Notes under the pieces: generated by a model | What the model was told of the DNA's origin: nothing | The model's database searches: none | The model's input: the letters and a program-made list of their open reading frames with translations, nothing else | Origin: Candidatus Uhrbacteria bacterium | Lineage (GTDB): Bacteria > Patescibacteriota > Patescibacteriia > 2-12-FULL-60-25 | DNA: 37,651 nt | Direction of reading: 5' to 3' | Assembly (NCBI GenBank): GCA_016203535.1 | Contig: JACQMO010000009.1 | Location: 1 to 37,651, forward strand | Position numbers and translations under genes: made by a program | In this document: positions 15,470 to 30,692 of the stretch, piece by piece | Layout of the letters: each line of letters starts with the position of its first letter | Numbering within the stretch: position 1 is the first letter of the stretch

Positions 15470-16024
15470 TTACGACTTGCGTCCGATGATGGCGGAGACG
15501 TTTCCACCCTGGCGTTTCACTTCCTGTTCGGTGTAGAGCGTATATTTCGATCCGATGTCGTGGATAAAATCCTGAATGCGCTTGACCGCCAGTTCGGCAT
15601 GCGCCTTTTCGCGGCCGCGCATGATGATCTCGATCTTGAGCTTCTGCCCCTCTTCGAGGAAGGCAAGCGCCTGCTGCAGCCGGACGTCCAGATCGTGTGC
15701 GCCCATTTTGACGGAGAGGCGGATGCCCTTGACCTCGACTTTCTTTGCGTGGGCTTTCTGCGTCCGGTATTCCTTGTCTTTCTGGTATTTGAAGGCGCCG
15801 TAATCAAGGAGGCGGCAGACCGGCGGCGTTTCTTTCGGCGAAACCTCGACGAGGTCGTATTCCCGCTCGCGCGCGATGGTGAGCGCCCGGGCGATCGGGA
15901 GGACGCCGAGGAATTTTCCCTCATCATCAATCACCCGGACCTCCGGACTCATGATCTGTTCGTTTACGCGATATTGGATGCCGGTCGGCTTTTGGGGCAC
16001 GCGCCGGCGGTAGTGGATTCGCAT
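15470..16024 (-). CDS. infC: Translation initiation factor IF-3
   Basis: 184 residues from the ATG at 16024. N-terminal domain with QYRVNEQIMSPEVRVIDDEGKFLG, linker, and C-terminal domain with RLSVKMGAHDLDVRLQQALAFLEEG and KIEIIMRGREKAH. IF-3 prevents premature subunit joining and checks start codon and initiator tRNA. The frame is open upstream to 16294, but that part is the tmRNA gene read through. The start lies 8 nt after the tmRNA 3' end, so infC has almost no leader once tmRNA has been excised. The start is ATG, not the AUU used for autoregulation in E. coli. Confidence 0.95.
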   Translation of the reverse strand: MRIHYRRRVPQKPTGIQYRVNEQIMSPEVRVIDDEGKFLGVLPIARALTIAREREYDLVEVSPKETPPVCRLLDYGAFKYQKDKEYRTQKAHAKKVEVKGIRLSVKMGAHDLDVRLQQALAFLEEGQKLKIEIIMRGREKAHAELAVKRIQDFIHDIGSKYTLYTEQEVKRQGGNVSAIIGRKS

Positions 16025-16032
16025 GTTTGGTA

Positions 16033-16427
16033 TGGAGATGGGGGGAGTTGCACCCCCGTCCGAACCGTTCCCCCGCAATCGTCGTTCACAGGCATAGTCT
16101 GCTCGAAATTTCGGCGGCCGGACAAGAGCGGACGAGGACCGGTCGCCTACACATCGTGCCATGTCAGTAGCGCTGAGACGTGACCAGCGATACCTAAGCC
16201 CGAGAAATGACGATCTCATCCGAAGGGTCGGGCCGCTCTCCGGGAGATCGTGGTTGTCGCCCTTAGGCGAGAGCCATTGAAGGTGAAGAGACACGGAACG
16301 CCGAAGCGACCGCGTTCTTCATCTTGTTCAAGACGTTGGCAATTGTCTGTGTTGAAACGGTTTTACGAGACGTTTCCGCTCGGCCTGCCGATTGTGAAAG
16401 AAGGATCCGTCAACGCTCGGCATCCCC
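16033..16427 (-). ncRNA. ssrA: tmRNA (transfer-messenger RNA)
   Basis: The 5' end GGGGATG (16427-16421) pairs with CATCTCC (16040-16034), with discriminator A at 16033 and no encoded CCA. After the 5' acceptor strand comes GCGTTGACGGATCC, matching the conserved TTCGACGGG region. The T arm is GGGGG-TGCAACT-CCCCC, with TGC in place of the usual TTC. The tag frame starts GCC AAC GTC at 16340 and ends GCT CTC GCC TAA (stop 16265-16263): 25 residues, beginning ANVLNKMK and ending SPSMALA, long for a tag but with the usual hydrophobic Ala-rich end. tmRNA with SmpB frees ribosomes stalled on non-stop mRNA. Its first 18 nt overlap the end of smpB. Confidence 0.92.
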
Positions 16428-16856
16428 TCGACGCAGTTCACGGTCAATGTCCCGTTTTTTGAGTTTCTCTCGCTTATCCGCGGCTTTTCGGCCGCGCGCG
16501 AGTCCGAACGAGAGCTTGATGTGACGGCCGCGAGGATACAACGATAACGGCACCAGTGTCAAGCCTTTTTGCTTGATTTTTCCCTGGAGGGAGCTCAATT
16601 CCCGGCGCTCCAGCAGGACCTTGCGATCGCGCGTCGGATCATAGCCGGGAAGAGGTCCGGCCTTGGCGTACGGCGAAATGTGGGCGCCCACCAGCCAGAG
16701 CTCGTCCGCGCGGAAGGCGAGGTACGTTCCGGCGAGCTTCGCGCCGCCGCTTCGGATCGACTTCACCTCATGTCCGAGCAACACCAATCCGCCATCGAAC
16801 GTTTCGAGGATGTCATAGTCGTGCCGTGCCTTCCGGTTTTCCGCGAACGTGGCCAT
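16410..16856 (-). CDS. smpB: SsrA-binding protein SmpB
   Basis: 148 residues. MATFAENRKARHDYDILETFDGG, then GHEVKSIRSGGAKLAGTYLAF (the oligonucleotide-binding barrel), DRKVLLERRELSSLQGKI and a basic C-terminal tail (GLARGRKAADKREKLKKRDI) that inserts into the empty mRNA channel. It binds the tRNA-like part of tmRNA and is needed for trans-translation. The last codons (GGG GAT GCC GAG CGT TGA) are also the first 18 nt of mature tmRNA. RNase P cleavage at the tmRNA 5' end would therefore remove the last five sense codons and the stop codon. The upstream gap to the divergent AI-2E gene is 70 nt; no clear -10 is visible. Confidence 0.97.
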   Translation of the reverse strand: MATFAENRKARHDYDILETFDGGLVLLGHEVKSIRSGGAKLAGTYLAFRADELWLVGAHISPYAKAGPLPGYDPTRDRKVLLERRELSSLQGKIKQKGLTLVPLSLYPRGRHIKLSFGLARGRKAADKREKLKKRDIDRELRRGDAER

Positions 16857-16926
16857 GAAAAAAGATGGAAGCGTGAACCCATATCATGTACCATAGCTGT
16901 CAACGACCCGCTACCCACTTCCCCCC

Positions 16927-24314: not shown

Positions 24315-25445
24315 ATGCCGAGATCATGGATCGTATTGATTCTGGTGGTCGGCGTCGTCTCGGCAGCCGCCGGGACCGCCAATGCCCAGGTGTGTTCACC
24401 GGGGAAGATCAAGAAGGTGACGTGTAACCAGGGCGATCCGCCCGAGTGCGTCACCCGATGCGTCGATGCGCCGCCGGAAGCGCCGAAGCGGCCGACGCGA
24501 CACGCGGCACCGCCGCTGGAAGATCCGTATGCGGCACCGCCGCCGAAGCCGTCTGTGCCCAAGCCGGATCCGCGGTGCAAGCCGGGAGAGTTCGTCTATT
24601 CGGACGAGGACGGCAGCAAGAGCTGCAAGTCCTCGGCCGACATGTACGCCATGCTTCGCGACATCCAGGCGCGCATCAAGGCGCTTCAGGAGAGCGGAGT
24701 CCCGCAGGGCCGGACGGACGAACCCATGCCGCCCCTCTCGCCGGTGCTGAAAGGCGAGCCGGAACCGACCCCGGAGCCGCCTCCGGTTCCGGAGCCACCG
24801 CCTCCCGCGGTGGAGCAGGATCCGATCGCGGCCGAGCTCGCGCGCCTCAACGCGCGTCTCGCGGCGATCGAGAAGCAGTTGTCCGTTCTGCAATCCGTCG
24901 AAAGTCGCGTCGCGGCGCTCGAACAGGAGAAGTTGATCCCGCCCGTGTCCGTCGATACCGCCTCGAAGCCGCGCGGGCCGATCTGGCTCGAGCTTTCCGC
25001 GATCGGGAACGTCCACTCGCTCACGCCCTACGACCAGGTCCTCTGGGCCACGGGCGCGGAGATCGCGGTCCTTCCGACGCTCACCGATCGGTGGGGTCTG
25101 CTCTTCGGCGCGGGTGCCGGCTATGCCGGAGCCGACGACCTGGGCAACAAGCTCTTCGCCGTCTGGGCGACGGCCGGAGCGCAGGCGCAGATCGTCGCGG
25201 ATCTGCATCTCGCGTTCGGTCCGATCATGGAGCTCCGGTTCGACGGCGACCGGAAGGACACGGACTCCTACGGCGGGTTCCTCCAGCCGAAGTACTGCTG
25301 GAGGAAGTACCGCCCGAATGCGCTCTGCGGCGGGATCCGAGCGGCCGTCGAGGCCACGCGGTTCCAGGGCCCGCAGACCGGCGAGCTGTTCACCCGCGCG
25401 GACAGCAGCTTCACCGCCACGCTCGGGTACGGATTCGAGCCATGA
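24315..25445 (+). CDS. Secreted proline-rich, coiled-coil protein with C-terminal beta-barrel-like domain
   Basis: 376 residues. Signal peptide MPRSWIVLILVVGVVSAAAGTANA, then a short Cys-rich part (CSPGKIKKVTC, CVTRC), a Pro-rich region (PPKPSVPKPDPRCKPGE), a helical segment DMYAMLRDIQARIKALQ, a second Pro-rich spacer with PEPPPVPEPPPP, and a coiled coil with heptads AELARLNARLAAIEKQLSVLQ and VESRVAALEQEKL. From about residue 225 beta strands follow (IWLELSAIGNVHSL, WGLLFGAGAGYAGADD, AQIVADLHLAFGPIMELRF), ending TATLGYGFEP. This plan suits a trimeric or barrel-forming outer-membrane protein. It is the last gene of the atypical island and stops 8 nt before a terminator. Function unknown. Confidence 0.65.
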   Translation: MPRSWIVLILVVGVVSAAAGTANAQVCSPGKIKKVTCNQGDPPECVTRCVDAPPEAPKRPTRHAAPPLEDPYAAPPPKPSVPKPDPRCKPGEFVYSDEDGSKSCKSSADMYAMLRDIQARIKALQESGVPQGRTDEPMPPLSPVLKGEPEPTPEPPPVPEPPPPAVEQDPIAAELARLNARLAAIEKQLSVLQSVESRVAALEQEKLIPPVSVDTASKPRGPIWLELSAIGNVHSLTPYDQVLWATGAEIAVLPTLTDRWGLLFGAGAGYAGADDLGNKLFAVWATAGAQAQIVADLHLAFGPIMELRFDGDRKDTDSYGGFLQPKYCWRKYRPNALCGGIRAAVEATRFQGPQTGELFTRADSSFTATLGYGFEP

Positions 25446-29412: not shown

Positions 29413-30692
29413 AACGTCCGCTCGTTCGCACGCTTGGAAACGGCCTCACGACAATCCTGGTCCCGCAAAAAGGCGCGACCTCCATGACGATCTTCGTCAT
29501 GGTGCGCGTCGGTTCCCGCTACGAAACGCGGCCCATCAACGGGGCGTCTCATTTCATCGAACACCTGATGTTCAAGGGGACGACGCGACGGCCCACGACC
29601 CAAATCCTCACACAGACCATCGACCGGTACGGCGCGGAGTACAACGCGTTTACCGGTAAGGACCTCACGGCGTACTACATCAAGATCGCCGCCGAGCAAA
29701 CGCCGCTTGCGATCGACATGCTGCACGACATGCTGTTCCACTCGCTGTACGATCCCAAGGAAATCGACCGCGAGCGCGGGGTGATCGTCGAGGAGATCAA
29801 CATGTACGAGGACAATCCGCGCATGCATCTGGAGGATCTCCTCGAAGGCGCGCTCTTCCCGGATTCCACGCTCGGCTGGAACATCGCCGGACCGCGCGAG
29901 GTGATCCGGTCGGTCACGCGCGAACAGCTCATCACGTACCGCGATTCCTACTATCACCCGTCGCGCATCACGGTCGTCATCGCGGGAAAGATCCCGGCCG
30001 GGACGTCGTCGCTCCTCCATCAGACGTTCGGGAGCGTCCGTCCCCGTCGCGCCGGCGCGGACGACGCGTTCGCCCGGTTCTGCCCGCCCGCGGACCTGGG
30101 GTTGCCCGTCGCCCTCCAAACCAAGAACACCGAACAGGTGCAGCTCGGCCTTGCGTTCCACGGGCTCCATCTTTCCCATGACGACGCGCCGGCGGCCTCG
30201 CTCCTCGCCACGATCCTCGGCGGCAGCATGTCGTCGCGTCTCTTCATCGAGATCCGCGAACGGCGCGGCCTGTGCTATTCCATCCGGGCGTCGCACGAAT
30301 CGCTCGAAGACACCGGCGTGTTTTCGGTGACCGCCGGACTCGAGAAAAAGCGTTTCCCCGAAGCGGTCGGGGCGATCCTGGGTGAGTTGAAGAAGGCCGT
30401 TCGACGGCCGCCGGCGCCGGAAGAGATCCGCCGCGCCAAGGACCACGTCCGCGGGAAGACGATGCTCGCGTTCGAGGATTCGGCGACGCAGGCGGAGTGG
30501 TACGGGCGCCAGTGGACGTTTTTGGGGCAGGTCGAAACGCCGGACGAGAAAATGAAACGGCTGGAGAAGGTGACCGCCAGGGATGTCCAGCGCGTCGCGA
30601 AGAAACTGTTCGATCCGTCGCATCTCGCCGCTGCGGTGATCGGCCCCTTCCCGGACGCCGCCCCGATCCGCCGGATGCTTCGACAGACATAA
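29409..30692 (+). CDS. M16-family zinc metallopeptidase (PqqL/MPP-like)
   Basis: 427 residues from ATG 29409, overlapping the glyS stop by 4 nt. Begins with LGNGLTTILVPQKGATSMTIFVMVRVGSR and the inverted zinc motif H48-F-I-E51-H52 (SHFIEHLMFKGT). The third zinc ligand is in VIVEEINMYEDNP, probably Glu-129, 76 residues after H52 as in pitrilysin. The C-terminal inactive half carries RGLCYSIRASHESLEDTGVFSV. No signal peptide, so cytoplasmic. The family cleaves peptides within a clam-shell chamber of two similar halves; a single-chain protein of this size would pair as a dimer. Substrates are unknown. Confidence 0.93.
   Translation: MKRPLVRTLGNGLTTILVPQKGATSMTIFVMVRVGSRYETRPINGASHFIEHLMFKGTTRRPTTQILTQTIDRYGAEYNAFTGKDLTAYYIKIAAEQTPLAIDMLHDMLFHSLYDPKEIDRERGVIVEEINMYEDNPRMHLEDLLEGALFPDSTLGWNIAGPREVIRSVTREQLITYRDSYYHPSRITVVIAGKIPAGTSSLLHQTFGSVRPRRAGADDAFARFCPPADLGLPVALQTKNTEQVQLGLAFHGLHLSHDDAPAASLLATILGGSMSSRLFIEIRERRGLCYSIRASHESLEDTGVFSVTAGLEKKRFPEAVGAILGELKKAVRRPPAPEEIRRAKDHVRGKTMLAFEDSATQAEWYGRQWTFLGQVETPDEKMKRLEKVTARDVQRVAKKLFDPSHLAAAVIGPFPDAAPIRRMLRQT

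What the first reader, a model, noticed from the sequence alone, without database searches (positions are those of the whole stretch)
16410..16427. smpB and tmRNA genes overlap by 18 nt: tmRNA maturation would make smpB a non-stop mRNA
The smpB codons GGG GAT GCC GAG CGT TGA are at the same time the first 18 nt of tmRNA, including the whole 5' acceptor strand GGGGATG (pairs with CATCTCC at 16040-16034). Known: RNase P cuts the tmRNA precursor at this 5' end. Inference: on a shared transcript every tmRNA produced cuts off the smpB stop codon. The cut smpB message would stall ribosomes and become a substrate of the SmpB-tmRNA system itself, a built-in feedback that links SmpB and tmRNA levels. 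infC begins 8 nt after the tmRNA 3' end, so processing also frees an infC message with almost no leader.
Basis: partly seen in the sequence, partly recalled or inferred. Interest (0 to 1): 0.78.

Follow-up and report, generated by a model that had tools for sequence, protein, structure and literature searches.

The report
smpB–ssrA overlap; ssrA promoter inside smpB
The last 18 bases of the smpB gene really are the first 18 bases of the tmRNA gene, but the self-cutting feedback proposed for this was already described in an insect symbiont and is not conserved here; the more interesting thing next to it is a promoter for tmRNA that appears to be written inside the smpB protein codons and kept there across much of the Patescibacteria.

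Summary
Observation confirmed: Rfam places the tmRNA 5' end at 16427 and the smpB stop is 16412-16410, so the genes share 18 nt. (1) It is prior art: Hudson et al. 2014 (PMC4131195) described the same overlap, and the same non-stop feedback idea, in Carsonella. (2) The overlap is not conserved: the same-genus genome G001 has a 69-nt gap, and overlaps of 1-18 nt are scattered over 11 of 129 linked Patescibacteria genomes. (3) ssrA appears to have its own promoter inside smpB: the codons for GLT...LYP read TTGACA-N18-TATCCT (16562-16533), sigma70-type, 105 nt upstream of tmRNA. The site is strong in 103 of 129 genomes where ssrA directly follows smpB and in 1 of 59 where it does not; synonymous resampling gives about 24 of 129. 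Where it is missing, 11 of 24 linked genomes have a strong promoter just upstream of ssrA instead. So most tmRNA need not come from an smpB message, and 'every tmRNA produced cuts off the smpB stop codon' does not follow. Read-through smpB transcripts would still lose their stop if RNase P matures the tmRNA. No transcript data exist here; promoter activity is inferred.

The parts
16410..16427 (-). 18-nt overlap: smpB codons GGG GAT GCC GAG CGT TGA = tmRNA nt 1-18
16410..16856 (-). smpB, 148 aa
   Evidence: PF01668 E=1.4e-48
16033..16427 (-). tmRNA (ssrA); Rfam model span 16030-16427, discriminator A at 16033, CCA not encoded
   Evidence: RF00023 105.8 bits; acceptor 7/7 pairs
16557..16562 (-). 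-35 hexamer TTGACA (codons L-T of smpB), predicted ssrA promoter
16533..16538 (-). -10 hexamer TATCCT (codons Y-P of smpB), 18-nt spacer, predicted ssrA promoter
16428..16526 (-). predicted 5' leader of pre-tmRNA from the internal promoter (about 99 nt, smpB 3' codons); start site inferred
   Evidence: inference
15470..16024 (-). infC (IF3), starts 8 nt after tmRNA discriminator
   Evidence: PF05198/PF00707
14877..15431 (-). rpmI (L35, 15431-15237) and rplT (L20, 15215-14877)
   Evidence: PF01632, PF00453

Best explanation
smpB and ssrA have been packed together until the smpB stop codon fell inside ssrA. This is tolerated because ssrA has its own sigma70-type promoter buried in the conserved smpB codons for GLT...LYP (TTGACA-N18-TATCCT, 16562-16533). 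That promoter gives a pre-tmRNA with a leader of about 99 nt, made only of the 3' end of smpB and without its start codon, which RNase P removes; infC-rpmI-rplT can be read from the same transcript. New stop codons come ready-made from the tmRNA 5' end (TTGAC in the D-loop for the 18-nt overlaps; GGGGATGA or GGGGGTGA for the 8-nt ones). smpB messages from an upstream promoter that run on through ssrA would still be turned into non-stop messages by tmRNA maturation, as a side effect of the packing rather than a kept regulatory device. Shown: the overlap, its lability, the promoter-like sequence, its synonymous conservation and its dependence on ssrA lying next door. Inferred: promoter activity, start site, transcript sizes, any SmpB tagging.
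For: Site strong (-35 >=5/6, -10 >=4/6, spacer 18) in 103/129 linked genomes vs 1/59 unlinked, Fisher p=9e-27, ignoring phylogeny. Independent pairs on the best tree: 25 linked/unlinked contrasts, promoter tracks linkage in 13, opposes in 0, no difference in 12, p=2.4e-4. Synonymous resampling within genes: 103 observed, mean 24, max 37 in 500 trials. At the site TTG is used by 110/129, ACA by 95/129, TAT by 111/129, though elsewhere in the same genes these make up 18%, 21% and 57% of their codon families. No other position in smpB has a recurrent hit, nor the reverse strand. Same-genus contrast: G105/G127/G242 linked with TTGACA/TATAAT, G175 (ssrA on another contig) TTCACC/TATCCG. G240, first filed as lacking tmRNA but with the promoter, proved to have tmRNA just downstream of smpB. 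Linked genomes lacking the site: 11/24 have a >=10/12 promoter within 180 nt upstream of ssrA; 1 on the reverse strand; 1.2 expected from shuffles. Other phyla mostly use CTG ACG ... TAC TTC. Only promoter hit in the 2-kb scan of the window. Overlap labile.
Against: No RNA data. The window's -10 (TATCCT, 4/6) is weaker than the TATACT/TATAAT of many relatives. On well-supported branches only, 5 independent pairs remain and the sign test cannot reach significance. 26 of 129 linked genomes lack the strong site, though three of these (G008, G021, G023) keep TTGACA with TACCCT. G149 has a moderate site (TTGACT/TATACC) and no tmRNA was found in its locus.
Confidence: 0.78

Rival explanations
1. Selected feedback: smpB and ssrA are co-transcribed, tmRNA maturation removes the smpB stop, and tagging and decay of SmpB from the cut message balances SmpB against tmRNA.
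For: Overlap real; no room for a terminator between the genes; the gene upstream of smpB is divergent, so smpB transcription must start near 16857-16926 and run into ssrA; the same idea was published for Carsonella.
Against: Not conserved within genera; a TTGACA-N18-TATNNT ssrA promoter is present in most overlap genomes (G000, G002, G003, G024, G043, G053, G077); overlaps (11/129) are about as common as exact abutments (7) and fewer than short gaps, as expected from drift in spacing.
Confidence: 0.12
2. Plain compaction with no promoter in smpB: ssrA is made only by processing of the smpB-ssrA-infC transcript, and the TTGACA...TATNCT codons are kept for a protein or RNA reason.
For: L-T and Y are common at these positions in SmpB of all phyla.
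Against: The constraint is on synonymous bases, vanishes when ssrA is elsewhere, and matches the sigma70 consensus at both ends with fixed spacing; lost sites are often replaced by intergenic promoters.
Confidence: 0.08
3. Artefact: a sequencing error or wrong gene end creates the overlap.
For: Draft genome in 30 contigs.
Against: Both genes are intact; an 18-nt overlap of the same form, with the same TTGAC stop, occurs in the separate genome G024, and 8-nt overlaps in six others.
Confidence: 0.02

Closest known systems
Carsonella ruddii smpB-ssrA overlap (Mao 2009; Hudson, Lau and Williams 2014, PMC4131195)
   Same: smpB CDS runs into the 5' end of ssrA, so that tmRNA maturation is expected to give non-stop smpB mRNA; present in only some strains.
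   Different: Carsonella SmpB has lost its C-terminal tail and central loop; here the tail is kept. The 2014 survey found the overlap nowhere else; here it recurs in scattered Patescibacteria, and ssrA appears to have its own promoter within smpB.
arfA non-stop mRNA (RNase III cleavage; Garza-Sanchez 2011, Chadani 2011, as summarised in PMC3985003)
   Same: A ribosome-rescue factor whose message loses its stop and is tagged by tmRNA.
   Different: There the cut is by RNase III and the truncated product is an active backup; here the cut would be by RNase P and would hit SmpB itself, with no evidence of selection.
Promoter internal to recA driving recX in Mycobacterium tuberculosis (PMC3062782, title and start of abstract only)
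   Same: A promoter inside the coding region of an upstream gene drives an overlapping downstream gene.
   Different: Here the promoter sequence is conserved over much of a phylum at the synonymous level and the downstream gene is a structural RNA.
CDS-tRNA overlaps (250 upstream CDSs running into valid t(m)RNA genes in 2031 genome projects, PMC4131195 Table 4)
   Same: Maturation of the RNA would truncate the upstream message.
   Different: Those mostly involve tRNAs and unrelated proteins.

Membership tests
tmRNA (Rfam RF00023) | Full-length covariance model match above gathering score | tested here: met
   105.8 vs 47 bits, positions 1-374
tmRNA (Rfam RF00023) | Acceptor stem with G-U third pair (alanine identity) | tested here: met
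   GGGGATG/CATCTCC, 7/7 pairs
tmRNA (Rfam RF00023) | Tag reading frame ending in a hydrophobic/Ala residue and stop | tested here: met
   ...SSPSMALA*, conserved with G001 ...SSPAMALA*
SmpB (PF01668) | Profile match over the whole domain, basic C-terminal tail kept | tested here: met
   E=1.4e-48, profile 2-139/143; tail DKREKLKKRDIDRELRRGDAER
Carsonella-type smpB-ssrA overlap | smpB stop codon lies inside mature tmRNA | tested here: met
   18 nt
Carsonella-type smpB-ssrA overlap | Non-stop smpB mRNA is actually produced | not testable with these tools
   needs RNA ends; only expected, not shown, for Carsonella in the text read
Carsonella-type smpB-ssrA overlap | SmpB tail lost (as in Carsonella) | tested here: not met
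   tail kept; same gene arrangement, not the same degenerate state
Intragenic sigma70-type promoter | -35 and -10 hexamers at 16-18 nt | tested here: met
   TTGACA-18-TATCCT, 10/12
Intragenic sigma70-type promoter | Conserved beyond protein-coding need and tied to the downstream gene | tested here: met
   103/129 vs 1/59; synonymous resampling mean 24
Intragenic sigma70-type promoter | Primary transcription start downstream of the -10 | not testable with these tools
   no RNA data
ArfA-type non-stop regulation | Nuclease cut before the stop codon, retained in relatives | tested here: not met
   overlap not kept within genera

The most novel reading that the evidence does not exclude
Two promoters and one overlap make a timing device: the promoter inside smpB supplies tmRNA steadily, while the longer smpB-ssrA transcript allows full-length SmpB to be made only until its tmRNA part is finished and cut by RNase P, after which that message is non-stop and its SmpB is tagged. 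In some lineages this would cap SmpB according to the level of free tmRNA.
Probability: 0.12. Interest if true: 0.75.

Novelty: new variant of a known kind. Interest (0 to 1): 0.52.

Why it matters
The overlap extends a curiosity thought confined to Carsonella to several Patescibacteria lineages. The promoter is the more useful result. It is a regulatory signal written in synonymous positions (and in one amino-acid position) of smpB, present when the RNA gene it serves is next door and absent when that gene has moved. It gives a specific sigma70-type promoter (TTGACA-N18-TATA[AC]T) to test in a group of mostly uncultured bacteria in which few promoters have been mapped (own knowledge), and it argues against models in which ssrA is made only from the smpB message.

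Tried and rejected
Chance overlap through a misplaced tmRNA end: rejected, acceptor invariant in relatives. Frame-shift error: rejected. Conserved overlap in the genus: looked for, found a 69-nt gap instead. smpB-specific promoter upstream: none recognised in the window; 16 of 38 family genomes have a loose (>=9/12) hit there, not informative. CDS-tRNA overlap as a genome-wide habit: only one other plausible case among 39 tRNAs of this genome (L222, 13 nt, HTH-like ORF with only sub-threshold Pfam hits), so neither common nor unique. Well-supported-branch-only pair test: too few pairs. Literature search for an ssrA promoter inside smpB: nothing found in the held open-access papers. One of the three rows of a DNA alignment (L162) was on the wrong strand; that row was ignored.

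Full report
What is there. On the minus strand the window carries smpB (16856-16410; PF01668, E=1.4e-48), ssrA/tmRNA (16427-16033, Rfam span to 16030; 105.8 bits), infC (16024-15470), rpmI and rplT. The smpB codons GGG GAT GCC GAG CGT TGA are tmRNA nucleotides 1-18. The acceptor stem is complete (7/7 pairs, G-U at pair 3), the CCA is not encoded, and the tag frame ANVLNKMKNAVASAFRVSSPSMALA matches the same-genus genome G001. The closest named relatives are Candidatus Uhrbacteria and other Patescibacteria.

Is the overlap a feature or an accident of packing? In 83 genomes of the same class with smpB followed directly by ssrA, the smpB stop lies inside tmRNA in nine (18, 18, 12, 10, 8, 8, 8, 8 and 1 nt), abuts it exactly in six, and lies 1 to 492 nt upstream in the rest. 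Two more 8-nt overlaps and one more exact abutment occur in a phylum-wide sample of 46 further linked genomes. The overlap is not kept within genera: the window's genus has 18 nt vs a 69-nt gap (G001), g3 has 8 nt vs a 176-nt gap, g11 has 18 nt vs gaps of 14-101, g6 has 8 nt, 0 and a 53-nt gap. The new stops are supplied by the tmRNA itself: all six 8-nt overlaps use GGGGATGA or GGGGGTGA, and both 18-nt overlaps use TTGAC in the D-loop, a sequence also present in relatives whose SmpB ends earlier. This looks like repeated drift of the stop into the RNA gene, not a maintained device.

Prior art. [quoted passage not shown] They also counted 250 upstream CDSs running into valid t(m)RNA genes among 115,660 such genes.

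The promoter. The simple promoter scan of 2 kb around the junction found one site, on the right strand and inside smpB: TTGACA at 16562-16557, 18 nt, TATCCT at 16538-16533. These bases are the codons for L-T and Y-P in the conserved peptide KGLTLVPLSLYP. Across relatives the same four codons are nearly always TTG ACA ... TAT NCT (or AAT), although the protein would allow many others. In SmpB genes of other phyla the usual spelling is CTG ACG ... TAC TTC. I then used genomes of the same phylum in which ssrA is not next to smpB as controls. A strong site is present in 103 of 129 linked and 1 of 59 unlinked genomes. Resampling synonymous codons within each gene gives 24 of 129 on average, never more than 37 in 500 trials. 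No other position of smpB, and nothing on its other strand, shows a recurrent hit.

Relatedness. The raw contrast ignores shared descent. On an SmpB tree built without the four site residues there are 25 independent linked/unlinked pairs; the site goes with linkage in 13, against it in none, and does not differ in 12 (p=2.4e-4). Restricted to well-supported branches only five pairs remain and no conclusion is possible. The clearest close pair is genus g89, where G105, G127 and G242 have ssrA next door and TTGACA/TATAAT, and G175 has ssrA on another contig and TTCACC/TATCCG. G240, first listed as lacking tmRNA but with the promoter (TTGACG/TATACT), turned out on a direct covariance search to have tmRNA just downstream of smpB. 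Among 24 linked genomes without the strong site, 11 have a promoter of at least 10/12 matches within 180 nt upstream of ssrA, against 1 on the reverse strand and 1.2 in shuffles, for example TTGACA-17-TATAAT in G044 and G078.

How it most likely works (inference). RNA polymerase starts about 7 nt after TATCCT, near 16526, and makes a pre-tmRNA whose leader of about 99 nt is the 3' end of smpB without its start. RNase P removes the leader at 16427 (5' processing of tmRNA by RNase P is established; PMC3985003 abstract). No smpB message is lost in this route. The transcript can continue into infC, which starts 8 nt after the tmRNA. smpB itself must be transcribed from close upstream, since the neighbouring gene is divergent, and there is no room for a terminator before ssrA; those transcripts do contain tmRNA and, if matured, would end at the CGA codon before 16427 and be non-stop.

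Limits. No transcript, RNase P or protein data were available; promoter activity and start site are predictions. The window's own -10 is weaker than that of many relatives. The genome is a draft of 30 contigs. Linkage was judged by contig and strand, so some genomes filed under 'other contig' in fragmented drafts could be misfiled, which would only weaken the contrast. One class genome (G057) has a poorly called tmRNA 5' end (4/7 acceptor pairs). The ORFs next to tRNAs were checked by Pfam for only five.

Noticed in passing
window 16033-16024 and relatives: infC is found downstream of ssrA in 75 of 83 linked class genomes (8 nt after it in the window), so smpB-ssrA-infC-rpmI-rplT looks like an old cluster and infC may be read from the ssrA promoter.
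   Followed up: partly
smpB codon after Tyr (16535-16533): The residue after Tyr is mostly Phe or Leu in other phyla but Thr/Pro/Asn/Ser/Ala in linked Patescibacteria, as the -10 needs NCT or AAT: the promoter seems to have changed the protein.
   Followed up: partly
SmpB C-terminus, 16428-16410 and relatives: The SmpB tail in the window's family often ends in RG followed by acidic residues (RGEDVE, RGEDI) also where there is no overlap; in overlap genomes the tmRNA acceptor GGGGAU encodes the G-D of a similar motif.
   Followed up: no
L222 (G000:C30:30408-30479) and L231: A 245-codon HTH-like ORF runs 13 nt into a tRNA gene in the same genome; an ORF that looks like MurF by eye abuts a tRNA exactly.
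   Followed up: partly
G040:C33/C39, G058:C1/C17, G016:C27/C63, G024:C20/C17: Two tmRNA genes above the Rfam cut-off in one genome; the second copy is not next to smpB and may be mobile-element-borne or contamination.
   Followed up: no
window 16030-16427; 24807-24900; 29972-30066: ARAGORN missed the tmRNA and called two tRNAs (Ala cgc, and one with a 4-base anticodon) that Rfam does not support.
   Followed up: no
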